From contig NZ_VOXD01000029.1 in NCBI RefSeq assembly GCF_008014675.1, positions 1-64,000 on the forward strand: a DNA stretch of 64,000 bases. Reading direction: 5' to 3'. The stretch's first letter is position 1. Each line of letters begins with the position of its first letter. Below, one piece after another: positions 674 through 63,525 of this stretch. A model generated the notes under the pieces. The model saw nothing but the letters and a program-made list of their open reading frames with translations, searched no databases and was not told where the DNA came from. The position numbers and the translations under genes were made by a program. The DNA comes from Neolewinella aurantiaca. GTDB lineage: Bacteria; Bacteroidota; Bacteroidia; Chitinophagales; Saprospiraceae.

Positions 674-1099
674 AGCTACCTACCTAGTAAACTCCACCCA
701 CTGAATAGCTACCCGCAGAGACCTCAGCACTTGTCGACTAGTGACTATTGGGTGGCGTTTCCGGTGTGTCCCCGGCTTCCTGATGTTTTTTTTGTGGCCC
801 CTATCATGGAACGGAGAAGGCGCCTTTAGTTTGCGCGCGTTGGTCCGTTCTACATTTACACCGAAGGCCAGTTGGAAAGAAAGAGTAGACGCGACAACCT
901 ATTATAACCCACCCTTGCACCTGCGGCCGCGCCCGTGATACCTTGAATATAACCCGGTTGGGAATGCTGGAATAGTTGGGATGTCTGCAGCCTTGTTGCG
1001 CTGCAAAGGCTAGCGGAGATTTTCTCCAGAAATCGTAAGAAGGGACAGTAAGAGATATGGTTGCGCCGGAAACCAGAAGGGCTTGACAGTAATATTACA
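674..1099. other. Gene-poor stretch
   Basis: No convincing gene. An open frame at 741-938 has no family resemblance and ends inside a copy of the dispersed GC-rich repeat (915-934), so it is not called. The stretch changes from A/T-rich on the left to GC-rich and may mark the edge of an acquired segment. Confidence 0.4.
915..934 (-). repeat. Dispersed GCACCTGCG repeat, copy 1
   Basis: Matches the consensus GGGCGCGNNCGCAGGTGCA in reverse orientation (TTGCACCTGCGGCCGCGCCC). Intergenic, single copy. Confidence 0.8.
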
Positions 1100-1166
1100 T
1101 TTTAAAAGTAAAGCTATCAACAAAGAGAGGTCTTCCTGTGTTTTGATGATAGTTTTACTTTTAAAA
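1100..1166. promoter_or_regulatory. 20-bp inverted repeat upstream of YKNR gene
   Basis: Arms TTTTAAAAGTAAAGCTATCA (1100-1119) and TGATAGTTTTACTTTTAAAA (1147-1166) are complementary at 19 of 20 positions, with a 27-nt spacer. The right arm ends 10 bp before the ATG at 1177, so a transcript covering it would carry a long A/U hairpin directly before the start codon. It could act as a leader structure, a dimeric regulator site, or a remnant of a mobile element. Confidence 0.6.
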
Positions 1167-1176
1167 AATAGAATCC

Positions 1177-1560
1177 ATGTTTAATCTGAAGTCAATCATT
1201 GCCTTATTCGTATTCATGCTGTCATCGGTTAGCCTTTTGGCAGGAACGTCCGCAGCTACCATCGTTAACGATTCCCTTCCTGCTGGCGCTGACCAGGCGA
1301 AGCTTGAGCAAATCGAGAAGATGCTGACCCACAGCCCTCACTACAAGAATCGTAACGCCGCTGGCCGAGTTGAGGTTCTCAGGCGCAACGCGCCCGCCGC
1401 AACAGCCAGCAAACAGGAAACGCTAACCGGACCGGCCTATAAGAACAGAAAGCGGACTCCGGTTGCAGCGGATACCACGGCTGCGCCCACCTATATCCGC
1501 CGCAAACTGATCAGCCCGCACTACAAGAACCGGAGCGCCAAATCCCGTCGCTCGCTGTAA
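1177..1560 (+). CDS. Small secreted basic protein with YKNR repeats
   Basis: The 127-residue product has a clear Sec signal peptide (hydrophobic residues 7-22, likely cleavage near AGTSAA). The mature part is short, basic and low in complexity. The motif SPHYKNR occurs at 53-59 and 113-119, GPAYKNR at 85-91, and a looser PTYIRR at 104-109, separated by Ala/Thr/Pro-rich linkers with dibasic or Arg-rich sites (RR, RKR, SRR). No known family was recognised. The layout of repeated short cores between basic sites resembles a multi-core propeptide, but it could equally be a nucleic-acid- or polysaccharide-binding tail. A strong hairpin follows the gene, and a 20-bp inverted repeat precedes it. Confidence 0.75.
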   Translation: MFNLKSIIALFVFMLSSVSLLAGTSAATIVNDSLPAGADQAKLEQIEKMLTHSPHYKNRNAAGRVEVLRRNAPAATASKQETLTGPAYKNRKRTPVAADTTAAPTYIRRKLISPHYKNRSAKSRRSL

Positions 1561-1635
1561 GTATACATGCGCCACAGATAAGAACAATCAGTTGTCTGTT
1601 CGGCTGCGCCGATAGACCGGAGCTAAGGAATTCAC

Positions 1636-1660
1636 TGCCCCCCGGCAAAGCCGGGGGGCA
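1636..1660 (+). terminator. GC-rich hairpin terminator
   Basis: TGCCCCCCGGC and GCCGGGGGGCA form a perfect 11-bp stem around an AAA loop, 75 bp after the stop at 1560. The T tract is weak (TCCTT). Confidence 0.6.
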
Positions 1661-1793
1661 TCCTTACGTCTGGCCAACTGCCGTCTTTCAGGATCGATGA
1701 CCGGGTTCAGCTACCCAAAAGTTCAACGCCTCCACTCTTCGGGTTGTCCAGCCTCACATCATCATCATTTCTTCATAACCAGATGCTCTAATT

Positions 1794-2396
1794 ATGACGC
1801 TCTTCAATAAAATAAAGTGGATTCTCGGTATCGCCGTCGTCTTCCTGCTCGTAATCACTACCAATCTGGTCGATCGGCAGAACTTCATGATCATTGAGGC
1901 GTCGATCGAAACGATCTACGCGGATCGGATAATCGCGCAGGACATCATTTACGACATCTCCAATGAAGTCGCACAAATTGAGGTAGACTACGCCAAATCC
2001 GGCTCTGATCAGCTAAACGTAAATCTCAGCTCTAACAACGATAGCATCGAGGAATACATCAGGTTGTTTGCCGCTACGAAGCTGACGGCAAAGGAGAAGA
2101 TGTTCTTCGATCGGTTGAAAGAGAGCCTGAAGGACCTCAAGTCAACTGCAGCGTCCGCTGCGGCGGATGAGGAATCTGCCGAAAAGATGAAAGCCAATCT
2201 CATGACCGTTCGCGAACAACTGGACGAGTTGGCAGACATTCAGGTTCAGGAAGGGAAAAGGGAACTCTACGAGAGTAAAAAAGCCCTGGGGTCGGCCTAT
2301 CTGTTCACTCAGTTGGAGATCGCGGCCCTGATTATCATGGCGGTCATCGTGCAAATTATTATACTCTACGCACCGAAAATCGACCCCGATGCCTGA
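1794..2396 (+). CDS. Membrane protein with MCP-type four-helix-bundle sensor
   Basis: The 200-residue product has a transmembrane helix at about 9-27 and a second at about 171-192. Between them lies a charged, helical periplasmic region of about 140 residues, as in the four-helix-bundle sensor domain of methyl-accepting chemotaxis proteins. It stops soon after the second membrane helix and has no HAMP, signalling or kinase domain, so it looks like a stand-alone sensor module of the kind annotated in Bacteroidota as 'MCP four helix bundle domain-containing protein'. It could partner with a separate signalling protein. Ligand and role are unknown. Confidence 0.65.
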   Translation: MTLFNKIKWILGIAVVFLLVITTNLVDRQNFMIIEASIETIYADRIIAQDIIYDISNEVAQIEVDYAKSGSDQLNVNLSSNNDSIEEYIRLFAATKLTAKEKMFFDRLKESLKDLKSTAASAAADEESAEKMKANLMTVREQLDELADIQVQEGKRELYESKKALGSAYLFTQLEIAALIIMAVIVQIIILYAPKIDPDA

Positions 2397-2470
2397 CCGA
2401 CTCTCGGTTGAATGTCATCTTCGCCGGTGATTTTTCCTTCTCAGTTGCAGAGCGTAGCTGTACTCAATTG

Positions 2471-2545
2471 GTGCCTGTCACGGCTCCCTTCTCCCGAGGA
2501 GCCGGGCCGGGGGAGAGGGAGATCCGTGCATCTCGTGATACACAT
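2471..2545. repeat. Palindromic CTCTCC repeat, left of crp-like gene
   Basis: Contains CCTGTCACG, a hairpin around CTCCCGAGGAG, then GAGAGGGAGATCC and TGATACACA. It matches the element at 3319-3386 in the same orientation. The two flank the Crp/Fnr-like gene as direct repeats. Confidence 0.65.
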
Positions 2546-2553
2546 ATTTGTCG

Positions 2554-3135
2554 TTACCGGGCTTTATCGGCATTCTTGATTTTGCTCAGGAACTCATGGC
2601 GTATTCCGAGGTAGCTGGCCAGGTGTTTGTTGCTCAGCCTTTTGCTGATGTCAGGGTAGGTCTCAATGAAATAGAGGTACCTTTCTTTAGCCGTCAGGCA
2701 GTGATTCCGGACCAACCGTCTTTGCCAGGAGACCAGTGCTTTTTGGAAGATGATCCGGAACAACTTCTCAACTACCGGAAGAGCGTCGTACAATTTGCTT
2801 TTGTTTTCCCGGCTGATCAGCAGCACTTCACTGTCTTCCAGCGCCTGAATGTATAAATCTGAGGGCGTCTGGTTGGTAAAACTGTCGATGTCCATCAGCC
2901 ACCAGCCGCTCACCGCGAAGTAGAGGTTAATTTCGTTGCCTTTTTGGTCAATGGTGAATATCCGGAAACACCCGCTCAGTACAAAGCCTTCAAAACGGCA
3001 GGTTTTACCTCCTCTCAGTAAAAAGGTTTTTTTCTTTACTTCGCTGAAGTTGAAGTAATTGCTGATGGTGTTCAGGTCCTCATCCGGTAGCGGGAGGTGA
3101 TTGCGGAGGTTCTCTTTCAGTAAGTCGTATGACAT
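2554..3135 (-). CDS. Crp/Fnr family transcriptional regulator
   Basis: The 193-residue protein has an N-terminal cyclic-nucleotide-binding-type beta-barrel (about 20-115; the phrase RFEGFVLSGCFRIF is typical) and a C-terminal winged-helix region (about 145-190) with LSNKHLASYLGIRHEFLSKI as recognition helix. This is the usual layout of Bacteroidota Crp/Fnr regulators, many of which do not bind cAMP. No FNR-type iron-sulfur cysteine cluster is seen at the N-terminus. It is transcribed away from the agar block and enclosed by two similar palindromic repeats, so control of the neighbouring catabolic genes is possible but not shown. Confidence 0.85.
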   Translation of the reverse strand: MSYDLLKENLRNHLPLPDEDLNTISNYFNFSEVKKKTFLLRGGKTCRFEGFVLSGCFRIFTIDQKGNEINLYFAVSGWWLMDIDSFTNQTPSDLYIQALEDSEVLLISRENKSKLYDALPVVEKLFRIIFQKALVSWQRRLVRNHCLTAKERYLYFIETYPDISKRLSNKHLASYLGIRHEFLSKIKNADKAR

Positions 3136-3226
3136 CGTCTTCGTCTTAGGTTGATGGTGGGTGTACCCTGCGAGCGTCCGATCTCCCTTTTAAAAATGTC
3201 CAGGACCGGAGGTCCGTCTTACGTAG

Positions 3227-3250
3227 CACAGGGATTCGCCCCTGTGTTTT
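3227..3250. terminator. Hairpin with T tract
   Basis: CACAGGG and CCCTGTG form a 7-bp stem followed by TTTT. Just upstream GGACCGGAGGTCC forms a second small hairpin. Both lie in the 300-bp gap between the Crp/Fnr gene and the GH86 gene, and probably belong to a composite repeat. Confidence 0.4.
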
Positions 3251-3318
3251 CGTTCGTGCAATTTGTTATTTACACACCGCGAGCGCGTATCACCAAATGC
3301 ACTGCTATCACGAATTTG

Positions 3319-3386
3319 CCGCCTGTCACGTCCCCCCTCTCCCGAGGAGCGGGGAGAGGGAGATCCATACCTCCCATGATACACAC
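3319..3386. repeat. Palindromic CTCTCC repeat, right of crp-like gene
   Basis: Second copy of the element at 2471-2545 in the same orientation, sharing GCCTGTCACG, CTCTCCCGAGGAGC, GAGAGGGAGATCC and TGATACACA. Confidence 0.65.
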
Positions 3387-3435
3387 GTTCCCCGGCAAAA
3401 AGAGAACCCGCCTGGGGTCTGGTTTTGTCCCGAAT

Positions 3436-5637
3436 TTATCGGATTATGACCTTCCGCTCGGCGTTTCCTGCGTTGGTGCTTACACGGAGTACGTAAACGC
3501 CAGTCGCAAAGTCGGCGACATTCAACCGAACGGTTCCTCTTTGGTTGTCGCGTCTGGCGATAATGCGGCCAGCACTGTCGATCAGGATTAAGGTTGCCTC
3601 CGGCAACCCGGCATCGAGCGTTACTGTCAGTTCACGGTGGACCGGGTTGGGGTAAACCAGCACCTGGGCTTCCGCAAGCCGGGGGGCAGTAGTACCCACT
3701 GCTCCTGAACTCCGTTGCACTTCGCGGCTGAAGGCGAAGGTCTGCAGGGCTACCGAACTGACGTGACCGCCGTTGTCGGGGAAAGTCACAACAATTTCAT
3801 TGCTCTCCTGCAGCAGGGAATAGGGAACCGGTATTTCCAGCATGCCGAAGAACCGGTCGCGGTTGTTCTGATCGTAACCACGATAGTCTTCGGGTACGTT
3901 CACCGGTGTACCGTTGATCGACAGGGTAGGGCGACGGTTGCTGACCCGGTCTCTGCCAATGCCCAGCCGGAGGGTCGCTTCTCCGTATGCACCGGTCGCA
4001 AGACCTTCCACCCGAAAGGTGAGCGGCTGGTTGGCCAGGATCGGGCGGAGCATATCGGTAGCGTAGGTTTTTCGTTCTTCGCTGCGCTCATTTGGGGTCA
4101 ACGCTTCGGCGAACGTGTACTCGATCACGGCGGTGGCTTCCTGCCCTAGGGTGAAGGAGGGCAGGGTGCTCGGGGTCGTTTCTTCCAGAACCGGCACCAG
4201 GTCCGACTGGCGGTAAAGATGCTTGACCCGGATGTTAGTTGGGGCTGCGCCCTGCGGGTGCACAACGCTCAGGTCGATGTCCTGCGGTGAAAACTCCAGG
4301 CTGTTCAGGATCACGTAAACCTTATTGCCGTTCACGTAAGCATCGGCCTGAATGTCGGGGTCTGGCGACCAGCTGTCGACTCTCTTCCCGCGCACGTCTT
4401 TCCATAGTTCGAAGAACCCGAGCAGCTCGGTGTACACCCATTCGTCGCCGGTTTCGCCGGCCAGTTCGTGCTGTTGCCGCATCAGGCGGTAGGGATATTT
4501 GTTTCCGCTGGGGTCACTCCACCATGTGGCTTTGTTGAGGATGAAGGGAACGGTTTTCAGCATCACATCGGGCCGTTCCATCAGTTGCATCATCATGGTG
4601 CTGAACGAGCGGAGGTTATGCCAGTCGCGCTCCTTGGTGTAGGTCGTGCCGTTGATGCCAGGGCTCCAGTAGCCGTATTCCGAGATGTTCCATGGCTTTA
4701 CCTTGCCGGAGGTCAGTACGCTGTAGTGCTCGATCATATCCAGCACCGCTTCGATGTTGGAGCCGCTGCGCCGCACTACCTGTTCGGGGTTGGCGGGTAC
4801 GCCGTAGTCGTAGAGGTGAACACTGTAGAAATCCATATTGTCGCCGGCTTCGTCCATGAACATCTTCCAGTTGTCGCGCCATTGATCGAAGTCGTTCCGC
4901 TCCAGTTCGGGGAAGGCGGCGGTGTAGCCGCCCACCAGTACTTCCGGCAGGATCTGATCGAACTGCTCGGCAATATCGTTGTGCCAGCGGGCAATTTCCA
5001 GCGGGGTTGTCCCCCAGTCACCCGCCTGGTAGAAAGGCTCGTTTACCACTTCTACCATGGTGGGGCGTACCTGGCCGCTGGCTCCTCCCTCTCCGTAAAA
5101 CTCCTTCACGGTAGTGGCCATGAACTCTCCCAAAGCGGAGCCGTTGGCGTAGGTCCACCCTTCGTCGGGGCCACAGCAGGCGTTCGGGTTGGTGGGGCCG
5201 GAGGTGGGGAAGATCGACATCTGTCCGCCCACCATCATCGAGCGGGTACGGTGCTCGATGGCCCGGGCTGACGGAGAGCCGGCGTACCGTGCTTTGTCGT
5301 TCACCCCTTTGGTGGCAAGATTGGCAAGTAAGGGGTAGCCCGGCCGGGCCGGGTCTTCGAACGACTGGTTGTACTGCCATACCAGAGAGCCGTTGTCGCG
5401 CCCCAGGTAAACATCGTAATCGTTCAGGAACGAATTGCGTTGTTCGTCGCTGTCCCAGTCATTACTGAACAGGTTCTCGTGCATCACGATGAAACGCTCC
5501 CGGGCAAAACTGTCCGTACCGTTGACCGAGTGGCGCAGGTCGAGGTTGACGTCTATTTTGACGGGGTTCTGGGCGTTCATTTGGGCGCGGACGCAGGTGC
5601 AAAGCAGGAGTAGGAGGAAAACGGGAAGAATTCGCAT
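3436..5637 (-). CDS. GH86 beta-agarase/beta-porphyranase with T9SS sorting domain
   Basis: This 733-residue secreted enzyme is predicted to cut internal beta-1,4 bonds of agar or porphyran outside the cell. A Sec signal peptide (1 to about 18, ending CTCVRA) precedes a TIM-barrel of about 25-410. The likely acid/base is Glu200 in VVNEPFYQ and the nucleophile Glu320 in WNISEYGYW. Two beta-sandwich domains follow (about 420-510 and 530-645), as in B. plebeius porphyranase A. The end (about 655-733, VYPNPVHREL then GVYVLRV) is a type A T9SS sorting domain. GH86 is preferred over GH50 from layout and motifs. Agar or porphyran preference cannot be read from sequence. The signal peptide overlaps a copy of the dispersed repeat. 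Confidence 0.8.
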   Translation of the reverse strand: MRILPVFLLLLLCTCVRAQMNAQNPVKIDVNLDLRHSVNGTDSFARERFIVMHENLFSNDWDSDEQRNSFLNDYDVYLGRDNGSLVWQYNQSFEDPARPGYPLLANLATKGVNDKARYAGSPSARAIEHRTRSMMVGGQMSIFPTSGPTNPNACCGPDEGWTYANGSALGEFMATTVKEFYGEGGASGQVRPTMVEVVNEPFYQAGDWGTTPLEIARWHNDIAEQFDQILPEVLVGGYTAAFPELERNDFDQWRDNWKMFMDEAGDNMDFYSVHLYDYGVPANPEQVVRRSGSNIEAVLDMIEHYSVLTSGKVKPWNISEYGYWSPGINGTTYTKERDWHNLRSFSTMMMQLMERPDVMLKTVPFILNKATWWSDPSGNKYPYRLMRQQHELAGETGDEWVYTELLGFFELWKDVRGKRVDSWSPDPDIQADAYVNGNKVYVILNSLEFSPQDIDLSVVHPQGAAPTNIRVKHLYRQSDLVPVLEETTPSTLPSFTLGQEATAVIEYTFAEALTPNERSEERKTYATDMLRPILANQPLTFRVEGLATGAYGEATLRLGIGRDRVSNRRPTLSINGTPVNVPEDYRGYDQNNRDRFFGMLEIPVPYSLLQESNEIVVTFPDNGGHVSSVALQTFAFSREVQRSSGAVGTTAPRLAEAQVLVYPNPVHRELTVTLDAGLPEATLILIDSAGRIIARRDNQRGTVRLNVADFATGVYVLRVSTNAGNAERKVIIR
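5583..5603 (+). repeat. Dispersed GCACCTGCG repeat, copy 2 (in GH86 signal peptide)
   Basis: Exact match to GGGCGCGNNCGCAGGTGCA followed by AA. On the coding (minus) strand it is read as Leu-Cys-Thr-Cys-Val-Arg-Ala, the C-terminal part of the GH86 signal peptide. Confidence 0.85.
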
Positions 5638-5708
5638 GATGACTGATGGATTAGATAGGTATATGGCCGCGAAAAAGGAGTAAAAGGGTTTTAGGTGTTC
5701 GCTTTCTA

Positions 5709-6920: not shown

Positions 6921-6981
6921 GAAGATGTACTTTAAGTTGAGGTCGAAGAAGTGTTGGGGAGGGTAGGCAGGGATGATGGTG

Positions 6982-7749: not shown

Positions 7750-7792
7750 GTTTTTGCTTTAAGGGTGATCGCAATGTTCAATCAACTGATCA

Positions 7793-7812: not shown

Positions 7813-7949
7813 TGATGGTTTTCGTTGAATTGGCGTACGGAACGGAAGCAAAGATTACACCGCCGCCGCTCGGTCTCTAGCACACACCGTTTACACTCTA
7901 CTACATATGGATATTTCGCGGAGAAGAAGCACTTATCAGGCTTTTCCCG

Positions 7950-7970
7950 GGGCGCAGACGCAGGTGCAGA
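7950..7970 (+). repeat. Dispersed GCACCTGCG repeat, copy 4
   Basis: GGGCGCAGACGCAGGTGCA followed by GA, one mismatch to consensus. It forms an inverted pair with 7793-7812 and lies about 45 bp before the lactonase start. Confidence 0.75.
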
Positions 7971-8013
7971 CAAGTTTTTTAAAGAGCAAAGTTTTACCTT
8001 TCGATCATTAAAT

Positions 8014-8850
8014 ATGTACCCCATGACCCTGGATAGTCACCAGCACTTCTGGAAATACGAATTGCCGAAACACGATTGGATCGACGATGAGATGGCCGCC
8101 ATCCGCCGCAATTTCATGCCGGCCGATCTGCAACCCATCCTTGCCGCCAACGGCGTCGACGGCTGCATCGCCGTGCAGGCCGACCAAACCCTCGCCGAAA
8201 CCGACTTCCTGCTCGACATCGCCGCCAAACACGACTTCGTCAAAGGCGTCGTCGGTTGGATCGACCTCCGTGCCGATGACCTCGCAGAACAGCTTGAACG
8301 GTATGCCGGTCAGCCTTTATTAAAAGGTTTTCGCCACGTGGTGCAGGGCGAACCCGATCCGCTCTTCCTGCTGCAACCCAACTTCCTGCGCGGCATCGAC
8401 CTGATCGGGCAAAAAGGATACACCTACGACATCCTGATCTTCCCCCACCAGTTGGTCAGCGCCCTGGAACTGGTGAAGCAGTTTCCCGAATACAAATTTG
8501 TGATCGACCACCTGGCCAAACCTTACGCCAAAGCGGGGTACTTCACCGGATGGGCCGCCGCCATGGCCGCCATCGCTGAGTTCCCCAACGTCTGCTGCAA
8601 ACTCTCCGGCCTGATCACCGAAGCCGACTACCATAACTGGACCACCGATGAACTCCTGCCGTACCTGCGGCACGCGCTGGAAGTCTTCGGTCCGGACCGC
8701 TGTATGTTCGGTTCCGACTGGCCCGTCTGCCGCGTTGCCGGAGATTACGCACAGGTAAAGGGTCTCATCGAGACCCTCCTGCAGGACTCATCACCAGCAG
8801 ACCAGAAAGCCGTTTTCGGCGAGAATTGTGCTCGCTTTTATGACATCTGA
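8014..8850 (+). CDS. COG3618 amidohydrolase, probable L-galactono/L-fucono-lactonase
   Basis: The 278-residue TIM-barrel metal hydrolase starts with the metal motif DSHQHFW and continues with VIDHLAKP, CKLSGL and FGSDWPV, the signatures of the COG3618 lactonase family that opens L-fucono- and L-rhamnono-1,4/1,5-lactones. The open frame extends upstream, but the family N-terminus begins here (ATG at 8014, or 8023). It is alone on the plus strand between two minus-strand runs. In this sugar context it most likely hydrolyses L-galactono-lactone made by the SDR at 55699-56493; this is inferred. No signal peptide, so cytoplasmic. Confidence 0.82.
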   Translation: MYPMTLDSHQHFWKYELPKHDWIDDEMAAIRRNFMPADLQPILAANGVDGCIAVQADQTLAETDFLLDIAAKHDFVKGVVGWIDLRADDLAEQLERYAGQPLLKGFRHVVQGEPDPLFLLQPNFLRGIDLIGQKGYTYDILIFPHQLVSALELVKQFPEYKFVIDHLAKPYAKAGYFTGWAAAMAAIAEFPNVCCKLSGLITEADYHNWTTDELLPYLRHALEVFGPDRCMFGSDWPVCRVAGDYAQVKGLIETLLQDSSPADQKAVFGENCARFYDI

Positions 8851-18741: not shown

Positions 18742-18762
18742 GGGCGCGAACGCAGGTGCAGG
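18742..18762 (+). repeat. Dispersed GCACCTGCG repeat, copy 5
   Basis: Full match to GGGCGCGNNCGCAGGTGCA in an intergenic position between divergent genes; single copy. Confidence 0.8.
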
Positions 18763-26013: not shown

Positions 26014-26033
26014 CTGCACCCGCGTGCGCGCCC
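26014..26033 (-). repeat. Dispersed GCACCTGCG repeat, copy 6
   Basis: CTGCACCCGCGTGCGCGCCC, reverse orientation, paired with the copy at 26051 across 17 bp. Confidence 0.8.
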
Positions 26034-26068
26034 GAAATACAATCGTATCCGGCGCGCACGCAGGTGCA
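26015..26068. terminator. Inverted repeat pair between convergent genes
   Basis: Copies 6 and 7 form an 18-bp stem with one mismatch and an 18-nt loop. They lie between the ends of the sulfatase (25950) and the minus-strand GH117 (26102), where a bidirectional terminator is expected. No long T tract is present. Confidence 0.5.
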
Positions 26069-32285: not shown

Positions 32286-32306
32286 GGGCGCGGCCGCGGG
32301 TGCAAA
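32286..32306 (+). repeat. Dispersed GCACCTGCG repeat, copy 9
   Basis: GGGCGCGGCCGCGGGTGCA followed by AA. Intergenic between the DUF1501 and GH16 genes. Confidence 0.8.
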
Positions 32307-34346: not shown

Positions 34347-36155
34347 ATGCTCCGATTAATTGCCCTTCTTTCGTTAACGACTCTTTGCACCTGCGCCCGC
34401 GCCGTCCAACCTGAAACCGACGCAAAGGAACAGCCTCCGAACATAGTATTTATCCTGACCGACGACCAGGGCTACGGAGACCTGGGCGCACACGGAAATC
34501 CGTGGCTGCAGACGCCGAACCTCGATGCGCTGCACGACGAGAGCGTCCGCTTCACCAATTTTCACGTCGCGACTACGTGTGCGCCGACGCGGGCCGGACT
34601 GATGGGCGGTGTGAACTGCAACCGTGCCGGAGCATGGCACACGATCGGTGGGCACTCGATGCTTGGCACCCGTTTTGTTACCCTGGCTGATGAACTCAAA
34701 GAAGAGGGTTATACCACCGGCATTTTCGGGAAGTGGCACCTGGGCGATAATTATCCCTTCCGGCCGCAGGACCGGGGCTTCGATGAAGTCCTGATTCACG
34801 GCGGAGGTGGCGTTGGTCAAACCCCGGACGCCTGGAACAACGATTACTTCGATGATACCTACTTCCACAACGGACAGCCTGAAAAATACAGCGGTTACTG
34901 CACAGACGTATGGTTTGAGGAAGGGATGAAGTTCATTAAGGACAAAGCGGCGGCGAAACAGCCGTTTTTTGCTTACATCGCTACGAACGCTCCGCACGGT
35001 CCGTTTCACATCGAGGAAAAATACGTAGCGCCCTACCGAAACAACGATGCTATCGTGAATCCTAATTTCTACGGCATGATCGCCAACGTAGACGAAAACG
35101 TGGGCAAACTGATGTCGATGCTGAAAGCCTCGGGGCTGGACGAAAACACGCTCGTTATTTTCATGACCGACAACGGCACCGCTGCGGGTGCCGCCTATGA
35201 TCAATCGTTCCACGTCACCAGAGGATTTAATGCAGGGATGCGCGGTTACAAAGGCAAAGAATACGAAGGCGGTCACCGGGTTCCCTTCTTCATGAAGTTC
35301 CCCGCTAAAAGCGAAATTAAGCCGCAAGAGTACAATCAGCTAACGGCTTACACCGATTTCATGCCAACCCTGGTGGAATACGCCGGAGGAGAGGTCGCCT
35401 CCCGGGATCGCCTCGACGGAACCAGCCTGATGCCACTGCTCACATCCGGGAGTCAGGAACTTCTGAACGACCGTTTCCTGGTAGTGGATACGCAGCGCAA
35501 ACAGGTACCGGTAAGAGGCAAACAGAGCTGTGTGATGCAAGCCGACTGGCGCCTGATCAACGGGAAAAACCTGTACAATCTGGCCGCAGATCCTGGCCAG
35601 CGGGAAGACCTGGCTGGTCAGCATCCTGAGCGGGTAGCGGCCATGCAGGCCGCTTATGATGCCTGGTGGGACAGCATGACCGAAGACCTGAAAGTGATGC
35701 ACCGAATCGTCATCGGGGACGAGGCAGAGCCCGAAACCCTGCTTACAGCCCACGATTGGCACACGACCAATCCGCCGCCCTGGAACCAAAATTACATCCG
35801 TGCTGGCCTGGCGGACAATGGCTGGTGGGCACTCGAAACAGCAAGGGCAGGAACCTACCGCATCAGACTGTACCGGTACCCTCCGGAATCAGGGCTTGCT
35901 TTCGGGTCCGTTGCTCCGCCGGGAGACGAAATTCCCAACGGTACTGCCTACAAACCGGGGTTGAGCATCCGCCCGGTAGAGGTCAGTTGCTTCATCGATG
36001 ATCAGGAACTACAGGCCACGGCGGGATCAGCGGATGCTTACGTCGAATTTGAGGCAGAATTAGTTGCCGGCCCCACAAAGCTTTTCACCGTAGTGAAAGA
36101 CGAAAGCGGAACAGAGCGGGGAGCTTACTACGTAACCCTGGCACCAAAAGGATAA
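34347..36155 (+). CDS. S1 sulfatase (arylsulfatase A type)
   Basis: The 602-residue secreted sulfatase has the metal residues in LTDDQGYGD (39-40), the formylglycine motif at Cys78 (TTCAPTRAGLMGG, a canonical CxPxR), GKWHLGD, and MTDNGT. About residues 450-600 form a C-terminal beta-rich extension also seen in some polysaccharide sulfatases. The signal peptide (1 to about 19) ends LCTCARA and is encoded in part by a dispersed repeat. It follows the GH16 gene on the same strand. Substrate is probably a galactose sulfate of the same polymer; the exact position is unknown. Confidence 0.9.
   Translation: MLRLIALLSLTTLCTCARAVQPETDAKEQPPNIVFILTDDQGYGDLGAHGNPWLQTPNLDALHDESVRFTNFHVATTCAPTRAGLMGGVNCNRAGAWHTIGGHSMLGTRFVTLADELKEEGYTTGIFGKWHLGDNYPFRPQDRGFDEVLIHGGGGVGQTPDAWNNDYFDDTYFHNGQPEKYSGYCTDVWFEEGMKFIKDKAAAKQPFFAYIATNAPHGPFHIEEKYVAPYRNNDAIVNPNFYGMIANVDENVGKLMSMLKASGLDENTLVIFMTDNGTAAGAAYDQSFHVTRGFNAGMRGYKGKEYEGGHRVPFFMKFPAKSEIKPQEYNQLTAYTDFMPTLVEYAGGEVASRDRLDGTSLMPLLTSGSQELLNDRFLVVDTQRKQVPVRGKQSCVMQADWRLINGKNLYNLAADPGQREDLAGQHPERVAAMQAAYDAWWDSMTEDLKVMHRIVIGDEAEPETLLTAHDWHTTNPPPWNQNYIRAGLADNGWWALETARAGTYRIRLYRYPPESGLAFGSVAPPGDEIPNGTAYKPGLSIRPVEVSCFIDDQELQATAGSADAYVEFEAELVAGPTKLFTVVKDESGTERGAYYVTLAPKG
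34384..34403 (-). repeat. Dispersed GCACCTGCG repeat, copy 10 (in sulfatase signal peptide)
   Basis: TTTGCACCTGCGCCCGCGCC, read in the gene as Leu-Cys-Thr-Cys-Ala-Arg-Ala, the same phase as in the GH86 gene. Confidence 0.85.
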
Positions 36156-41405: not shown

Positions 41406-41426
41406 GGGCGCGTACGCGGGTGCAAA
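41406..41426 (+). repeat. Dispersed GCACCTGCG repeat, copy 11
   Basis: GGGCGCGTACGCGGGTGCA, directly after the T tract of the susD terminator; inverted pair with copy 12. Confidence 0.85.
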
Positions 41427-41489: not shown

Positions 41490-41508
41490 TTTGCACCTGC
41501 GGCCGCGC
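41490..41508 (-). repeat. Dispersed GCACCTGCG repeat, copy 12
   Basis: TTTGCACCTGCGGCCGCGC, reverse orientation, 63 bp after copy 11, upstream of the FG-GAP gene. Confidence 0.85.
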
Positions 41509-41572
41509 TACCTAAGCACACGCTGTTTTATCCGCTTAGTATCAGGTAAATTTTTATCGAAAATTTAGAATC

Positions 41573-45024: not shown

Positions 45025-45247
45025 GCAGTAACAAAACGTAAAAGACGCCAAAGGAAGACTACGCACCCTGGTGTTTTCTCAAATTTTGAATCGGGACTTT
45101 AGTCTTACGAGCGAAACAGGCCGGTATGGCTTGAGTGCCGGATCCAAGTGCTGTCAACTCCTTGCAGCAGGGCTGCACACGCCGGTTGAAGTAAGAGACA
45201 TTCCATACTACTGGACCTTTTGCTTCGCGGCTTCTTCGAGGTTTGGT

Positions 45248-45325
45248 TCCCTCTCCGCTGAGCCTTAAGGCGAGCACGAAGTACTGCGAAGCAAACCTTG
45301 CTGGAGAGGGCGGAGGGTAAGGTGG
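45248..45325. repeat. Palindromic CTCTCC element, longer variant
   Basis: TTCCCTCTCCGCTGAGCC...GGAGAGGGCGGAGGGTAAGGT. Similar to the elements at 8918 and 18883 but with a longer middle. Confidence 0.55.
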
Positions 45326-45439
45326 AAAATCAAAAATGTCCAGTAATATGGAGACATTCATAAAGGTTGGTTTCGGAGCACGTACCCATTGGTACGGAGA
45401 GGGGTGATATTGTTGCAGGACCGGAGCCAAAACCCTTGC

Positions 45440-45460
45440 CTGCACCTGCGTTTGCGCCCC
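45440..45460 (-). repeat. Dispersed GCACCTGCG repeat, copy 13
   Basis: CTGCACCTGCGTTTGCGCCC, reverse orientation, one mismatch; intergenic. Confidence 0.75.
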
Positions 45461-45644
45461 AAAAGCACTAAAAAGCGGGAAAACTGCGGACTTTTCGTGG
45501 GGTAAATCCATATGTGCTTTCCTTTTAAACATCTGTTGCCCCGTGGGGCGCGGAATGACTGGATATTTACACCGATCATGTAAGTAACCGGTAATTCAAT
45601 ATGTGCCGGAAGACTTAAAGTACTTTACAACTCATTGCTTGAAT

Positions 45645-52611: not shown

Positions 52612-54264
52612 ATGACTCACGAATGGCTTAGGCTCGATCCTGCCGATAACTTATTGGTCGCACTGCGTGACTTCCCCGCGGGACACAATATCGACGTTGC
52701 GGGAAAACCGTTGTGTCTGCAGAATGCTGTCCGCGCAAAGCATAAGTTCACCGACCGCTCCCTGGCCGTTGGTGAGCAACTTTTTATGTACGGGGTACTG
52801 GTGGGCGAAGCCACGGAGGCCATTCCTGCCGGAGGATTGATCCACACGGGCAACGTAGTTCATGCAGCACAATCCTACGGCGCCCGCAAACAGGGCTACA
52901 CCTGGAGCCCTCCGGATGTAAGCAAATGGGAAGGTCGGGAGTTCCTCGGGTATCACCGCGCCGGTGGCGCGGTTGGCACGGCCAATTACTGGCTGGTTAT
53001 TCCGCTGGTTTTCTGCGAAAACCGCAATGTGGAAACCATCCGCGACGCAATGATCGATCAACTGGGGTACGGCCGTCAACCGGATACGATCGTCGACGTG
53101 CACCGGCTCGTAGATGCCTACCGATCCGGTGCAGACGTTGAAGCGATCCTGCAACTCGACCCGCTGCGGAAAGGAAGCGAAGTGCAGCCCGAGAAAGTAT
53201 TCCCTAACGTAGACGGCATCAAGTTCCTGACCCACGACGGTGGCTGTGGTGGCATCCGGCAAGACGCGGAAGTGCTCTGCGAATTACTGGCGGGTTACAT
53301 CAGTCACCCCAACGTTGCGGGTGCTACGGTGCTAAGTCTTGGTTGCCAGAACGCACAGATTCCCATCCTGCAGGAAGCCCTGAAAAAACGAGGTGCTGCC
53401 GGTGATAAAACGGTCTTTTATCTCGAACAGCAGGCGAGCAACAGCGAACGCTCGTTCGTGGCAGAAGCGGTGAAGTTCACCTTTGCCGGGCTCATGGAAG
53501 CCGATCTTTGCACCCGCGCTCCGGCGCCCTTATCTGCCCTTACCTTAGGACTCGAGTGTGGTGGCTCCGATGGTTTCTCCGGCTTGTCTGCCAATCCGGT
53601 TCTGGGCCACGTGTCTGACTTATTGGTAGCGCTGAAAGCAAAAACAGTTCTTGCCGAATTCCCCGAACTGAACGGGGTGGAACAGGAGATGATCGACCGC
53701 TGCGCAAGCCCTGAACTGGCCGATAAATTCTCGGCGCTCATGCGGGCCTATTCCGACGCGGCGGAAGCCGTAGGCTCCGGCTTCAAAAACAATCCCTCTC
53801 CGGGAAACATCAGGGACGGCTTGATCACCGACGCTATGAAATCGGCCGGCGCAGCCAAAAAAGGGGGCTCCGGACCAGTTGCGGATGTACTCGACTACGC
53901 CGAGCCCGTCACCAAAGCCGGCCTGAACCTGCTGTGTACGCCGGGCAACGATGTGGAAAGCACCACCGGCCTGGCCGGTTCCGGCTGTAACCTCATCGTC
54001 TTCACCACCGGCCTCGGCACACCCACCGGAAACCCCATTGTTCCGGTAGTCAAAATGGCCAGTAATTCAATACTTGCCGGGCGCATGGCAGATATTATCG
54101 ACTTCGATGCCGGGCCGGTCATTACCGGAGAAGAATCCATCGCCGAACGTGGCGAAGCACTGCTGGAACTGCTGATCGAGGTAGCCTCCGGAAAATACCA
54201 AACCGCAGCCCAACGCCTGGGGCAGGACGATTTTATTCCCTGGAAACGAGGCGTTTCCCTTTAA
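52612..54264 (+). CDS. uxaA: Altronate dehydratase (UxaA family)
   Basis: The 550-residue iron-dependent dehydratase has an N-terminal SAF-like domain (about 8-100) and a C-terminal catalytic part with HDGGCGG, GLECGGSDGFSGLSANP and STTGLAGSGCNLIVFTTG, all family hallmarks. It turns D-altronate into 2-keto-3-deoxygluconate. It is slightly longer than E. coli UxaA (about 495). UxaB follows after 10 bp. With the L-galactonate-dehydrogenase-like gene at 19154 it completes a tagaturonate route for L-galactose. Related dehydratases of galactarate exist, but UxaB beside it favours altronate. A degenerate dispersed repeat lies in the coding sequence. Confidence 0.85.
   Translation: MTHEWLRLDPADNLLVALRDFPAGHNIDVAGKPLCLQNAVRAKHKFTDRSLAVGEQLFMYGVLVGEATEAIPAGGLIHTGNVVHAAQSYGARKQGYTWSPPDVSKWEGREFLGYHRAGGAVGTANYWLVIPLVFCENRNVETIRDAMIDQLGYGRQPDTIVDVHRLVDAYRSGADVEAILQLDPLRKGSEVQPEKVFPNVDGIKFLTHDGGCGGIRQDAEVLCELLAGYISHPNVAGATVLSLGCQNAQIPILQEALKKRGAAGDKTVFYLEQQASNSERSFVAEAVKFTFAGLMEADLCTRAPAPLSALTLGLECGGSDGFSGLSANPVLGHVSDLLVALKAKTVLAEFPELNGVEQEMIDRCASPELADKFSALMRAYSDAAEAVGSGFKNNPSPGNIRDGLITDAMKSAGAAKKGGSGPVADVLDYAEPVTKAGLNLLCTPGNDVESTTGLAGSGCNLIVFTTGLGTPTGNPIVPVVKMASNSILAGRMADIIDFDAGPVITGEESIAERGEALLELLIEVASGKYQTAAQRLGQDDFIPWKRGVSL
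53507..53529 (-). repeat. Degenerate dispersed repeat in uxaA, copy 14
   Basis: TTTGCACCCGCG...GGCGCCC, encoding Leu-Cys-Thr-Arg-Ala in the same phase as the signal-peptide copies. Two or more changes from consensus. Confidence 0.45.
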
Positions 54265-54274: not shown

Positions 54275-55687
54275 ATGCTGAATCCTCAGGATTTTGACCG
54301 TCCGCAACGCCCTTTACGCATCCTTCAGTTCGGAGGTGGCAACTTTCTGCGGGCCTTTGTCGACTGGATGATCGACGTTTTAAACGAACAAACGGACTTC
54401 AACGGTGGCGTGGTCATCGTGAAACCAACCAGCCGTGGAGACTATACAGAACTCCGGGCGCAGCACGGCTTGTTCTCCGTGGCGCTCGATGGCATTCGTA
54501 AGGGAGAACTGATCAGCGACCGGCGGGTCGTAACCTGCGTGCAGCAGGTCATTCAGCCTTATACCGAGCGGGCCGCCTACCTGGCTACCGCCGAGCTGCC
54601 CGGGATGAGGTTCGTGATTTCCAACACCACCGAAGCCGGTATCCGCTTCCGGGAGGAACCGCTTCCGGAAGAGGGAATGCCAACCGAGTTTCCGGCTAAA
54701 CTCTGTTTGTGGCTCCATCATCGGTTTCAGCATTTCGGGGCAGCAGGGCGCGGCCGCGGGTGCATTGTTTTGCCTTTGGAACTCATCGGGAACAACGGCG
54801 ATGAACTCCGGGAATGCATCCTCAAGTACGCAGTGCACTGGGGCTTGTCGGATGCCTTCCGGCAGTGGATACAGGAGGAAAATCACTTCTGTAATACGCT
54901 TGTCGACCGTATCGTTTCGGGCTATCCTGCGGATCGCGCGGCGGCCATCGCCGCCGAGACCGGCCACACTGACCCCCTGCTCGTAGCCGGAGAATATTAC
55001 CACAGCTGGGTAATATCAGGCCCACCTCAAGTGGCTGAAGAACTGCCTTTTAGCGATACTGACCTCAACGTTACTTTTACCGATGACCTCGACGCGTACC
55101 GGGAGATTAAAGTCCGTATCCTGAACGGCGCCCATACCAGTATTGTACCTACAGGCTACCTTGCCGGCCTCGAAACCGTAGGCGATGTGATGGCCGACGC
55201 TGAAATGAGCGCGTTCCTGGACAGTGTTCTGAACGACGAAATCATCCCCTCGCTCGATTATCCGGAAGCTGAACTTAAAGCCTTCGCGGCCGATGTGCTC
55301 GACCGCTTCCGTAACCCAAGTATCCATCATAAACTGATGGACATCTCCCTGAATTCCACCAGTAAATTCAGGACCAGACTCTTGCCTTCATTACTGGCCT
55401 ACCAAAAGAAAAAAGGCGAACTTCCGGCGGGCATTGTCCGCGCCTTCGCTGCCCTGATCCGGTTTTACCGGGGTGACCGCAATGGAGCGCCCATTGCCCT
55501 GCGGGATGCTGAAGACCGCATTACCTTCCTTCAGCAGGAGTGGAGCCGGGTTACTGCCAACGAGCAAACAACGGTTCAGCTCGCACGTAACGTGCTCAGC
55601 AAAACGGATTGGTGGGGTACGGACCTCAACGAGGTGCCCGGCCTGACCGATGCGCTCAGTGCGGGAATTCAAAAATATCAAGCTTAA
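54275..55687 (+). CDS. uxaB: Tagaturonate reductase (mannitol dehydrogenase family)
   Basis: The 470-residue long-chain dehydrogenase has the NAD-binding motif ILQFGGGNFLRAF, NTTEAGI (about 112-118), LPLELIGNNG (about 166-175) and the catalytic lysine region around RILNGAHTS (about 288-296). These are typical of UxaB, which reduces D-tagaturonate to D-altronate. It lies between UxaA and an SDR in one operon. The loop HFGAAGRGRGC at about 150-161 is encoded by a dispersed repeat; in other UxaB-type proteins this loop is variable. Confidence 0.85.
   Translation: MLNPQDFDRPQRPLRILQFGGGNFLRAFVDWMIDVLNEQTDFNGGVVIVKPTSRGDYTELRAQHGLFSVALDGIRKGELISDRRVVTCVQQVIQPYTERAAYLATAELPGMRFVISNTTEAGIRFREEPLPEEGMPTEFPAKLCLWLHHRFQHFGAAGRGRGCIVLPLELIGNNGDELRECILKYAVHWGLSDAFRQWIQEENHFCNTLVDRIVSGYPADRAAAIAAETGHTDPLLVAGEYYHSWVISGPPQVAEELPFSDTDLNVTFTDDLDAYREIKVRILNGAHTSIVPTGYLAGLETVGDVMADAEMSAFLDSVLNDEIIPSLDYPEAELKAFAADVLDRFRNPSIHHKLMDISLNSTSKFRTRLLPSLLAYQKKKGELPAGIVRAFAALIRFYRGDRNGAPIALRDAEDRITFLQQEWSRVTANEQTTVQLARNVLSKTDWWGTDLNEVPGLTDALSAGIQKYQA
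54746..54766 (+). repeat. Dispersed GCACCTGCG repeat, copy 15 (in uxaB)
   Basis: GGGCGCGGCCGCGGGTGCA followed by TT; encodes GRGRGC in a loop of the protein. Confidence 0.75.
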
Positions 55688-57961: not shown

Positions 57962-57979
57962 CCACTAAAAAAAACCACC

Positions 57980-58342
57980 ATGGCTAAGCGCCAAATCCTT
58001 ATTTGCGATCTGAAAAATGATCCTGCCCTCATTGAACGGTACAAAGAGTACCATGCCGCCGGCAATGCCTGGCCGGAGATAACGGAAAGCATCACCTCGG
58101 CGGGAATAACAGGTATGGAAATCTTCCTTGCCGGTAACCGCCTGGTGATGATTATGACCACCACGGATGATTTCGACTCTGCAGCAAAAGCAGCGGCGGA
58201 TGCCGCTAACCCCAAGGTCCGGGAGTGGGAAACCCTGATGGATACCTTTCAGCAACGGTTGCCCTTCGCCCCGAATGGCGAAAAATGGGTTCGGGCGGAG
58301 CAGATTTTTGATCTAACCGGCGCAAACGCAGGTGCAGTATAA
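57980..58342 (+). CDS. L-rhamnose/L-fucose-type mutarotase
   Basis: The 120-residue protein belongs to the RhaM-like mutarotase family (DLKNDPALIERYKEYHA, GITGMEIFLAGNRLVMIM, WETLMDTFQ). It interconverts anomers of L-sugars. In this operon it would supply the anomer needed by the SDR. The last residues (TGANAGAV) are encoded by a dispersed repeat, so the C-terminus may have been replaced by the repeat. A hairpin terminator follows. Confidence 0.85.
   Translation: MAKRQILICDLKNDPALIERYKEYHAAGNAWPEITESITSAGITGMEIFLAGNRLVMIMTTTDDFDSAAKAAADAANPKVREWETLMDTFQQRLPFAPNGEKWVRAEQIFDLTGANAGAV
58319..58338 (+). repeat. Dispersed GCACCTGCG repeat, copy 16 (3' end of mutarotase)
   Basis: GGCGCAAACGCAGGTGCAGT overlaps the last codons of the mutarotase; the stop TAA follows at 58340. 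Confidence 0.75.
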
Positions 58343-58373
58343 GGTTTTAAAACCCGGATTACTCCTCAATAAA

Positions 58374-58406
58374 ATGAGGTTCACGACGCTGTGTCGTGAA
58401 CCTCAT
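58374..58406. terminator. Bidirectional hairpin terminator
   Basis: ATGAGGTTCACGAC and GTCGTGAACCTCAT form a perfect 14-bp stem with a 5-nt loop between the convergent mutarotase and phosphatase genes. In the minus direction it is followed by TTTTATTG. Confidence 0.85.
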
Positions 58407-58467
58407 CATCGGTATTTGTTATTTAGCGGTACGGTGCGTACACTCTATGCACCGTAACGGCACATCA

Positions 58468-59580: not shown

Positions 59581-59701
59581 AATAATAGTATTGGTTGTTT
59601 ATAGTTTAAGCCGGCAAGCTAAGTCAAGTGTATAAGCAGCCCTGCTTTTCGACTTTAAGTTTGTGTAAACTGGCAGGCTCGCTACTCTTTTCTACATAAA
59701 A

Positions 59702-59732
59702 ACGCACCTTCCGGAATTTCCGGAAGGTGCGT
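59702..59732. terminator. Terminator of the T9SS repeat-protein gene
   Basis: ACGCACCTTCCGGAA and TTCCGGAAGGTGCGT form a perfect 15-bp stem. In the minus direction the stem is followed by TTTTTATG. Confidence 0.85.
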
Positions 59733-59769
59733 TTCATTCTTTGCCCTCAGGGCAAAACAGGTTTGGAGC

Positions 59770-62193: not shown

Positions 62194-62256
62194 GTCAAAT
62201 TGATTTAGTAGAGCGAATGTTACAGGCCGCCGCAGAGGTGCAACCGAAAGTGATTT

Positions 62257-63399
62257 CTATATGCGTTCCACGAATATGACGTTGTCGATATTCGCTTCTA
62301 TTTTTTGTCCGGAACCTTCCCGGTCTTCGATGTGGAATTTGATCTGGTTCACCTTTTGCGGATCGATGACGAAGCCACTGGCATCGCGGAAGCGCACGAG
62401 CGGAACACTGATGTGGTTCCAGCCGGCATCGTCTAGCTGCAGGCGGGTGGTGAAGTCCGAGGTGCTCCCGTTCTGCTCCCGCAAGACGAGCAGGAGCCAG
62501 GTATCGGTACGGCCGTTGCTGTTCACGTCCATCTCGAGGAAGGTGCTGTTCACGTCCGTTCTGATTCCGAAGGAATCAACGCCGTTGCCACCCGGTGTTT
62601 TTGGGCCGCCGAGCCAGACGGTCCCCAGGTCGTCGGTACCGCTTACCTGCATGAAGTTCCCGTCGAAAGGGGCGGGCAAACTGCTTCGAATGAGGGGAGC
62701 TCCGCTCTGTTGGTCGGTAAAACCATCGAAGGTGTACTGGTCGTTGGCGATCAGACCGTTGCCGTCGAAGTCGGTCACGAGTAGGTTGTCGAATACCTGA
62801 AAGGTTACGTTGGTTTGGGCGGTACCGCCGTTGGCCACCACCCGGATAAAGCCCGTAGTAGCGCCTTCGGGTACCCGGACGATGAGGCTGTCTTCGGCGG
62901 CATAAACAATGTCGGCGATCAGGCTGTCGGCGTAGCTGCCATCGATGAATTCTCCGGTTTTGAAACTCACTTCGAGTGGTTCGAAGAAGGCTTCGCCAAT
63001 GAGGGTTACCAGATCGCCGGGGTTGGCGGTCCGGGGGTAAAAGCGGGGAACCAGCGGAGGATCTTCGGTGACGACGAACTCCGTGTCAAAGCTGCCACCG
63101 TCGGTCCTGACGGTTACTCTTTTCTGGCCAAGACTCATATCGCTGGGAATGCGGAACAGCAGCGCAACGTCGGAATTGTAGGCCGTATTGAACGGTACTG
63201 GCTCGTCGTTGAACAGCAGTTCACGGATTTCTCCGAGGTTATTCCCCTTCAAGACAACCAGGGTTTCACGAGGGGCCATCATGGGTTCCAGCGAAACGAA
63301 TTCGGGTGGTTCCACTTTTTCGCAGCCACTGAAAAAAGCAAGGGCGAGCCCCATAAGGAGTACTAGCGGATGAAATAAGGACTTTGAGTTGAATAACAT
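62257..63399 (-). CDS. IPT/TIG-domain surface glycan-binding lipoprotein
   Basis: The 380-residue lipoprotein (lipobox FSGC, about Cys26) has two IPT/TIG immunoglobulin-like domains (about 33-110, LEPMMAPRETLVVLKGNNLGEI in outline; about 113-200, PRTANPGDLVTLIGEAF) and a C-terminal beta-sandwich (about 205-380, ending IEANIDNVIFVERI) that resembles the glycan-binding domain of SGBP-B proteins. It lies between SusD and the repeat protein and would hold the substrate at the surface. Confidence 0.8.
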   Translation of the reverse strand: MLFNSKSLFHPLVLLMGLALAFFSGCEKVEPPEFVSLEPMMAPRETLVVLKGNNLGEIRELLFNDEPVPFNTAYNSDVALLFRIPSDMSLGQKRVTVRTDGGSFDTEFVVTEDPPLVPRFYPRTANPGDLVTLIGEAFFEPLEVSFKTGEFIDGSYADSLIADIVYAAEDSLIVRVPEGATTGFIRVVANGGTAQTNVTFQVFDNLLVTDFDGNGLIANDQYTFDGFTDQQSGAPLIRSSLPAPFDGNFMQVSGTDDLGTVWLGGPKTPGGNGVDSFGIRTDVNSTFLEMDVNSNGRTDTWLLLVLREQNGSTSDFTTRLQLDDAGWNHISVPLVRFRDASGFVIDPQKVNQIKFHIEDREGSGQKIEANIDNVIFVERI

Positions 63400-63428
63400 A
63401 ATTGTAGTAAAGTGCTAATGTTTGAGGA

Positions 63429-63450
63429 GGGCGGTAAACGCGGGTGCAAA
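63429..63450 (+). repeat. Dispersed GCACCTGCG repeat, copy 17
   Basis: GGGCGGTAAACGCGGGTGCA, one-base longer centre. Inverted pair with copy 18 in the gap between the IPT/TIG and SusD genes. Confidence 0.7.
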
Positions 63451-63504
63451 GTCGGTTGAAGGACCTGCCCGCTTTGCGGTGTTGTCCGTCTTCGGAAAAC
63501 TTTC

Positions 63505-63525
63505 TGTGCACCTGCGTCCGCGCCC
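63505..63525 (-). repeat. Dispersed GCACCTGCG repeat, copy 18
   Basis: TGTGCACCTGCGTCCGCGCCC, reverse orientation, 54 bp from copy 17. Confidence 0.8.

What the first reader, a model, noticed from the sequence alone, without database searches (positions are those of the whole stretch)
915..63525. Dispersed 20-bp repeat family, consensus GGGCGCGNNCGCAGGTGCA
At least 18 copies (two more are degenerate) occur in 64 kb, in both orientations, about one per 3.5 kb. Chance cannot explain a 17-base conserved core at this density. Copies lie in intergenic gaps and inside at least five genes. They are too short to be a transposon. Options are a REP-like element moved by an unlinked transposase, a chromosome-organising or uptake-type signal, or a protein-binding site. 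I know of no description of this motif, but cannot check.
Basis: seen in the sequence. Interest (0 to 1): 0.85.

Follow-up and report, generated by a model that had tools for sequence, protein, structure and literature searches.

The report
Possible DNA-uptake signal in Neolewinella
A marine bacterium of the Bacteroidota carries about 1,500 scattered copies of a short DNA word that behaves like the 'self' tags some distant bacteria use to choose which free DNA to take up, and some of its relatives carry altered versions of the word.

Summary
In detail: 14 clear copies plus 1 weak one in the window (not 18), and 1,471 in the 6.0 Mb genome (≤2 mismatches), equal on both strands, with 1 for the reversed pattern. 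The motif is longer than reported: TTT-nn-GGGCGCGGMCGCAGGTGCA-RRG-nnn-GKTT. It is confined to genus Neolewinella: 39 relatives outside the genus have 0-7 copies; of 34 exact hits to a longer form among 84,980 genomes, 32 are in records named Lewinella/Neolewinella and 2 in one MAG named only Bacteroidia. Tests point away from a transposed REP. Copies in aligned, mostly coding DNA arise without insertion (0 of 49 homologous places lacking the motif lack ≥15 bp). Genic and intergenic copies share a consensus. Copy number ignores RAYT number. Spacing is more even than random. The low-copy species carry other dispersed words instead (G001 with sister G007; G011). This is the anatomy of DUS/USS uptake sequences. 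My best explanation is a receptor-recognised self signal for DNA uptake, in a group with no recognisable type IV pilus motor. Uptake itself is untested.

The parts
916..934 (-). motif copy, 0 mismatches to the 17 fixed bases; not in a called gene
   Evidence: 39.5 bits
5583..5601 (+). motif copy, 0 mismatches, near the 5' end of the porphyranase-like gene 3436-5637 (-), which there encodes CTCVRAQ after a hydrophobic run
7950..7968 (+). motif copy, 1 mismatch, in the 5' part of the longest ORF form of an amidohydrolase gene (7825-8850, TTG start); my gene caller places it outside the gene
18742..18760 (+). motif copy, 0 mismatches, not in a called gene
26015..26033 (-). motif copy, 1 mismatch, one of an outward-facing pair between convergent sulfatase and GH43-like genes
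26050..26068 (+). motif copy, 1 mismatch, partner of 26015
32286..32304 (+). motif copy, 1 mismatch, not in a called gene
34386..34404 (-). motif copy, 1 mismatch, near the 5' end of the sulfatase gene 34347-36155 (+), which there encodes CTCARAV after a hydrophobic run
41406..41424 (+). motif copy, 1 mismatch, intergenic, one of an inward-facing pair, directly after a terminator-like hairpin and T run (seen in the sequence)
41492..41510 (-). motif copy, 2 mismatches, partner of 41406
45441..45459 (-). motif copy, 1 mismatch; inside a short ORF without Pfam match (45059-45532) that my gene caller did not call
53509..53527 (-). weak copy (4 mismatches, 15.1 bits) inside the ORF 52612-54264
54746..54764 (+). 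motif copy, 1 mismatch, inside the mannitol dehydrogenase family gene 54275-55687; homologous DNA in relatives differs by substitutions and indels of at most 13 bp, not by an inserted unit
58318..58336 (+). motif copy, 2 mismatches, at the 3' end of the rhaM gene 57980-58342 (protein end TGANAGAV)
63507..63525 (-). motif copy, 0 mismatches, not in a called gene
   Evidence: 43.8 bits

Best explanation
The repeat is the genus-specific self-recognition word of a DNA-uptake system, working like the DUS of Neisseriaceae and the USS of Pasteurellaceae. Shown here: about 1,500 copies, both strands, even spacing, a consensus common to genes and gaps, origin without insertion where it could be aligned, retention beyond the flanks, and other words in the low-copy species. 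Inferred: a surface or periplasmic receptor binds about 36 bp of double-stranded DNA carrying the word; such DNA is taken up preferentially (ComEC is in all 21 genomes searched); recombination of the taken-up DNA keeps replacing weaker copies with better ones, so copies accumulate wherever the gene product tolerates them. When the receptor's preference shifts, the genome drifts to the new word, giving dialects. No PilB/PilT-type motor was recognisable, so I infer a route without type IV pili, perhaps like the outer-membrane proteins unlike known machinery that Riemerella needs (PMC8459023).
For: Count and control. Genus limits. Extended core-plus-flank motif in both 60 deep-genic and 127 intergenic copies, the T positions at +27/+28 weaker in genes. 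Origin: 0 of 18 motif-lacking comparisons (13 distinct copies, stringent) and 0 of 49 (28 distinct copies, permissive) have the homologue lacking >=15 bp. Retention at the same position in ungapped comparisons: 67 of 84 against 23.8 expected from flank divergence; per distinct copy 35.4 of 44 against 10.7. Spacing CV 0.83 against 0.99+-0.07, P 0.003. Words of other species: the G001 word has 661 copies in G001, 368 in its sister G007 and 1-165 in the other 19 genomes; the G011 word has 38 copies in 120 kb. Within 90 bp of the start codon, 29 of 30 copies over five species are the reverse complement, as published for most of the Pasteurellaceae examined, A. pleuropneumoniae excepted (PMC2346458). 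ComEC in 21 of 21. The longest stretch between neighbouring copies in 864 kb is a mobile island. R. columbina, also Bacteroidota, prefers its own DNA (PMC7965970).
Against: No uptake or binding was measured, and no record of competence in this genus was found. ComEC is widespread (10 of 14 control genomes), so it is weak support. No receptor was identified. The motif is longer than known DUS/USS cores. The second and third longest copy-free stretches hold ordinary genes, and the copy at the edge of the mobile island lies in the 5' part of its ArdC-like ORF. Close pairs are mostly inward-facing (16 of 18), which the model does not predict and which recalls REP doublets. The G011 word shares little sequence with the others, so calling it a dialect is inference. 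Intergenic copies, the majority, are hardly covered by the insertion test.
Confidence: 0.66

Rival explanations
1. A chromosome-wide binding site for an intracellular protein (nucleoid organisation, segregation, repair or self-marking for a defence system), kept by selection rather than by uptake bias. Copies would arise by point mutation and be conserved, as seen.
For: Even spacing, origin without insertion and retention, intergenic enrichment (127 of 208 in 18% of the sequence) and words that differ between species would all fit.
Against: No strand bias within contigs, unlike polar motifs such as KOPS or Chi (recalled). From recall, no such protein is known with a site of about 36 bp, some 1,500 copies and a word that changes within one genus. 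Inference: selection would have to act on very many dispensable-looking sites.
Confidence: 0.22
2. A REP/REPIN or MITE-like mobile element moved in trans by a transposase such as a RAYT.
For: PF01797 matches in 20 of 21 genomes; intergenic enrichment; 16 of 18 close pairs inward-facing, 14 pairs in this genome against 7.4 expected (95% 3-13).
Against: No insertion signature; 60 of 208 copies deep inside coding sequence, in all six frame/orientation classes; copy number independent of RAYT number; pair spacers look unrelated (by eye). Another, AT-rich repeat lies beside RAYT genes: in 1 of 8 fetched loci and, by coordinates, within about 100 bp of three more. The motif is at ordinary density round 8 RAYT loci (4 of 8 have one).
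Confidence: 0.07
3. A HIP1-like over-represented word of unknown cause (mutation, repair or methylation bias) without a receptor.
For: HIP1 of cyanobacteria (recalled) also sits in genes and gaps.
Against: The word is asymmetric with preferred positions over about 36 bp; a mutation bias would hardly make such a pattern or replace it by another in two sister species.
Confidence: 0.05

Closest known systems
USS of Pasteurellaceae (Haemophilus influenzae AAGTGCGGT with AT-rich flanks)
   Same: Over a thousand copies, both strands, core plus flanking segments, shown not to be insertions by a gap test like mine, two clade-specific words (PMC1626085, passages); reverse complement biased to gene 5' ends in most species examined (PMC2346458, section 3); inverted pairs occur (PMC5217627, passage).
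   Different: Unrelated sequence; longer conserved core (about 17-19 bp); Bacteroidota; no PilB/PilT-type ATPase recognised; about a third as dense (one per 4.1 kb; Haemophilus density recalled); the pairs here have long spacers; uptake not shown.
DUS of Neisseriaceae (ATGCCGTCTGAA and dialects, receptor ComP)
   Same: Dialects congruent with phylogeny (PMC3630211, passages); genome-wide dispersal.
   Different: ComP is a type IV minor pilin; no pilus motor recognised here; sequence unrelated.
Riemerella natural transformation (Flavobacteriia)
   Same: Same phylum; ComEC needed; four further needed proteins unlike known machinery (PMC8459023, sections 19 and 21); self-DNA preference in R. columbina (PMC7965970, section 16).
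   Different: The k-mers listed there as candidate words are nearly all A/T runs; no word was established.
REP/REPIN elements with RAYT
   Same: Dispersed, mostly intergenic, some inverted pairs.
   Different: No insertion signature, frequent in coding sequence, unrelated pair spacers, no link to RAYT number.

Membership tests
DUS/USS uptake sequences | Short motif highly over-represented, both strands, genome-wide | tested here: met
   1,471 copies, 730/741, reversed control 1
DUS/USS uptake sequences | Copies arise by substitution, not insertion | tested here: met
   0 of 18 and 0 of 49 motif-lacking homologues lack >=15 bp; in 5 of the 49 the motif-bearing side has a gap of 24-25 bp instead. 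Mostly coding DNA; intergenic copies hardly tested
DUS/USS uptake sequences | Clade-specific dialects | tested here: met
   kinship of the G011 word is inferred, and its genome-wide count was not made
DUS/USS uptake sequences | Depletion in recently acquired DNA | tested here: inconclusive
   Longest gap is a mobile island, the next two are not
DUS/USS uptake sequences | Naturally competent host with uptake machinery | tested here: inconclusive
   ComEC in 21 of 21; PF00437 gives only short partial matches, so no PilB/PilT recognised
DUS/USS uptake sequences | Motif raises uptake or transformation | not testable with these tools
   needs experiment
REP/REPIN with RAYT | Copies are inserted units | tested here: not met
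REP/REPIN with RAYT | Element linked to or dependent on a RAYT gene | tested here: not met
   Spearman 0.07, p 0.77; G018 has no match and 1,136 copies
REP/REPIN with RAYT | Palindromic unit, confined to intergenic DNA | tested here: not met
   60 of 208 copies deep in genes, 21 at gene edges; asymmetric motif

The most novel reading that the evidence does not exclude
Neolewinella has an independently evolved DNA-uptake specificity system without type IV pili, with an unusually long (about 36 bp) recognition word and at least three species dialects, the first in Bacteroidota, implying a new class of sequence-specific DNA receptor at the cell surface.
Probability: 0.5. Interest if true: 0.92.

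Novelty: new variant of a known kind. Interest (0 to 1): 0.82.

Why it matters
A 2025 paper calls Neisseriaceae and Pasteurellaceae the only families known to choose DNA at the binding step by short enriched words (PMC12616744, passages). A third, unrelated case in another phylum, apparently without type IV pili, would show that this form of bacterial 'sex' evolved repeatedly, would give a handle on the unknown outer-membrane DNA receptor of Bacteroidota, and offers a natural series of dialects against which to find that receptor by covariation.

Tried and rejected
Strand polarity: in the listing the G019:C1 places shown were all on the + strand; direct counting on 200 kb (13+/17-, ≤2 mismatches) showed this to be a listing effect. 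Two trees were built on wrongly picked frames and are not used; one search timed out; (FastTree, part of rpoB plus ComEC, root placed on G011 by assumption) is used only for sister relations. An EM run on G007 drifted to composition noise and is not used; the G001 run there also admitted false matches, so I quote the strict count (25 in 200 kb) and the genome count. The G011 pattern in 120 genomes of the family gave 1-38 per genome, none with hundreds, reversed control 0-41; G011 itself was not drawn. The ComEC neighbourhood did not point at a receptor: the large gene after it was found in 2 of the 20 other ComEC loci, which reach only about 1.5 kb past the matched domain. Rfam: no match in the window at gathering scores. 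Plasmids: one 161-bp piece of the window gave 2 chance-level records. IMG/VR: 10 stretches with an exact hit, 16 sites (≤2 mismatches) in 84.7 kb against 75 in 256 kb of named host loci, both sets chosen for holding a hit; host DNA cannot be told from phage, so not used. Gaps between copies: 1 of the 3 longest is mobile. In the alignment test some homologous stretches were held twice under two ids, and one motif copy met several species; distinct copies are therefore given too.

Full report
1. Is it there? In the window the pattern GGGCGCGNNCGCAGGTGCA occurs 14 times with ≤3 mismatches against 0.34 expected. A position matrix trained on 194 copies outside the window finds the same 14 plus one weak copy at 53509, against 0,0,1,0,0 in five random sequences. 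In the whole genome (5,995,659 bases, 104 contigs) there are 1,471 copies with ≤2 mismatches, 730 and 741 on the two strands, and 1 copy of the pattern read backwards.

2. The unit. Logos of 56 and 208 copies show nearly fixed positions GGCG....CGC.GGTGC plus weaker ones outside the reported core: T at -5 to -2, R-R-G at +19 to +21, G-K-T-T at +25 to +28, and a purine-rich stretch at about +32 to +36. The motif is asymmetric.

3. Where it occurs. Of 60 genomes searched (own genome, 20 of the genus, 39 outside it), the 39 outside have 0-7 copies. Of the 20 other members of the genus, 18 have 53-1,640, and G001 and G011 have only 10 and 8. An exact longer form was found in 34 stretches among 84,980 species genomes: 32 in records named Neolewinella agarilytica, N. 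persica or Lewinella sp., 2 in one MAG named only Bacteroidia bacterium (the tool warns that records near the window's genome may be left out). Neolewinella is Lewinellaceae, Saprospiria, Bacteroidota.

4. Genes and gaps. In 864 kb of this genome (window included), 127 of 208 copies (≤2 mismatches) are intergenic, 60 lie deep in genes and 21 at gene edges; my own hexamer-based caller puts 82% of the sequence in genes. About 4.6 copies (at the looser ≤3 mismatches) would be expected by chance in 864 kb, so the genic ones are real. Genic and intergenic logos agree in the main, including several outer positions; the T positions at +27/+28 are much weaker in genes (0.16 and 0.14 bits against 0.68 and 0.47). 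Deep-genic copies occur in all six frame/orientation classes, most in two (20 and 17 of 60), giving GAxAGA, ARTQVQ, APAxAP or HLRPRP. Within 90 bp of the start codon 16 of 17 are in reverse orientation, 15 of them in one frame, mostly reading like CTCVRAQ after a hydrophobic run. In four other species 13 of 13 such copies are reversed. Most of the Pasteurellaceae examined show the same tendency, A. pleuropneumoniae not (PMC2346458, section 3).

5. Substitution or insertion? Copies were aligned with homologous DNA of other species. Stringent: 52 comparisons, 18 lacking the motif (13 distinct copies), 0 of 18 with ≥15 bp missing in the homologue, largest gap 8. Permissive settings that tolerate long gaps: 154 comparisons of 73 distinct copies, 49 lacking the motif (28 distinct copies), 0 of 49 with ≥15 bp missing, largest gap 13; in 5 of the 49 the motif-bearing side had a gap of 24-25 bp; 2 of the 105 shared cases had ≥15 bp missing in the homologue. 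Limits: the same copy meets several species, some stretches were held twice, some permissive alignments are poor, and intergenic copies are under-represented. In ungapped comparisons the motif is kept at the same position in 67 of 84 against 23.8 expected from the flanks; counted per distinct copy, 35.4 of 44 against 10.7. This resembles the test by which USS were shown not to be insertions (PMC1626085, passages).

6. Spacing and pairs. Copies are more evenly spaced than random (CV 0.83; simulated 0.99±0.07; P 0.003). Pairs closer than 150 bp number 14 in this genome (7.4 expected, 95% 3-13). With 200 kb of G005 there are 18, of which 16 face inward, 2 outward and none the same way. Intergenic copies whose nearest gene boundary is a 5' end point their tail away from it in 47 of 66 (p 0.0008; 3' ends 34 of 58, not significant), which may explain the inward pairs in part. 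The pair spacers look unrelated (by eye). This orientation rule is not explained.

7. RAYT. PF01797 matches are in 20 of 21 genomes; their number does not follow copy number (Spearman 0.07). A different, AT-rich repeat near position 2631 of L087 has a relative in the flank of 1 of 8 fetched RAYT loci and, by coordinates, within about 100 bp of three further RAYT genes in G005 and G002.

8. Other words. A k-mer screen of the low-copy genomes showed other words: in G001 GGCGGCGGAGCGCAGGTAaAA, in G011 TTTTggCTnnCAAAGTAGCAatGct. The G001 word (≤2 mismatches) occurs 661 times in G001 and 368 in G007, its sister in the tree (support 1.0), and 1-165 times in the other 19 genomes. The G011 word occurs 38 times in 120 kb (reversed control 2), 21/17 by strand, 15 genic and 23 intergenic in a sequence called 85% coding; its genome-wide count was not made. 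G019 and G004 show milder shifts. In the 117 genomes of other genera drawn from the family the G011 word shows no excess of that size: 1-38 per genome.

9. Machinery. ComEC (PF03772) is in 21 of 21, and in 10 of 14 control genomes. Matches to the T2SS/T4P ATPase family PF00437 occur in 20 of 21 genomes but cover only short parts of the profile, at ≤24.9 bits (25.5 with neighbours), in long frames; 11 of 21 pass the cut-off formally. I read this as no PilB/PilT. Riemerella anatipestifer transforms with ComEC, DprA, ComF, RecA and four proteins unlike known machinery (PMC8459023, sections 19 and 21), and R. columbina prefers its own DNA, with no word established (PMC7965970, section 16).

10. 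Foreign DNA. The longest stretch between neighbouring copies in the 864 kb (22.7 kb, C12) carries ArdC-like, BRO-N and KilA-N genes, two DDE-transposase-type genes and a UPF0236 gene. The copy at its edge lies in the 5' part of the ArdC-like ORF. The next two stretches (17.3 and 16.9 kb) hold ordinary genes.

11. Verdict. Most properties of uptake sequences that sequence can test are met, two are inconclusive (foreign-DNA depletion, machinery), and the tests for an inserted element fail. Uptake itself is inferred. An intracellular binding site remains the main rival.

Noticed in passing
L087:2631-2700 (G000:C1 about 242631-242700): A different AT-rich repeat (ACTTACGTTTATATGCGTATGTAAACG type) that recurs in G002 and G005 and lies beside RAYT-type genes there (L096, and by coordinates three more); possibly the true REP of this genus.
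   Followed up: partly
L083:8128-8187: A nearly perfect palindrome (ACACCTTTTGCATATAAACATGTTTATATGCAAAAGGTGT) repeated in G003 and G008.
   Followed up: no
L083:17476-17526: A repeat of about 50 bp present in some 25-30 places of G003, some of them near contig starts.
   Followed up: no
G005:C46:1-200000 (L288-L297): A further abundant word, CAGGGGTTGCAGGGTCGCT, 10-mers of it 26-49 times in 200 kb, perhaps a clustered repeat.
   Followed up: no
G000 sample of 864 kb: Over-represented ACTCCCGACTC, 36-41 copies of its 10-mers, not part of the motif.
   Followed up: no
L283:3626-15177: Mobile island with ArdC-like, BRO-N, KilA-N and transposase-type genes; no motif copy beyond the one in the 5' part of the ArdC-like ORF.
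   Followed up: partly
window 3436-58342: Several polysaccharide-use genes among the ten scanned (porphyranase-like, two sulfatases, GH16, GH43-like, SusD, rhaM, mannitol dehydrogenase family).
   Followed up: no
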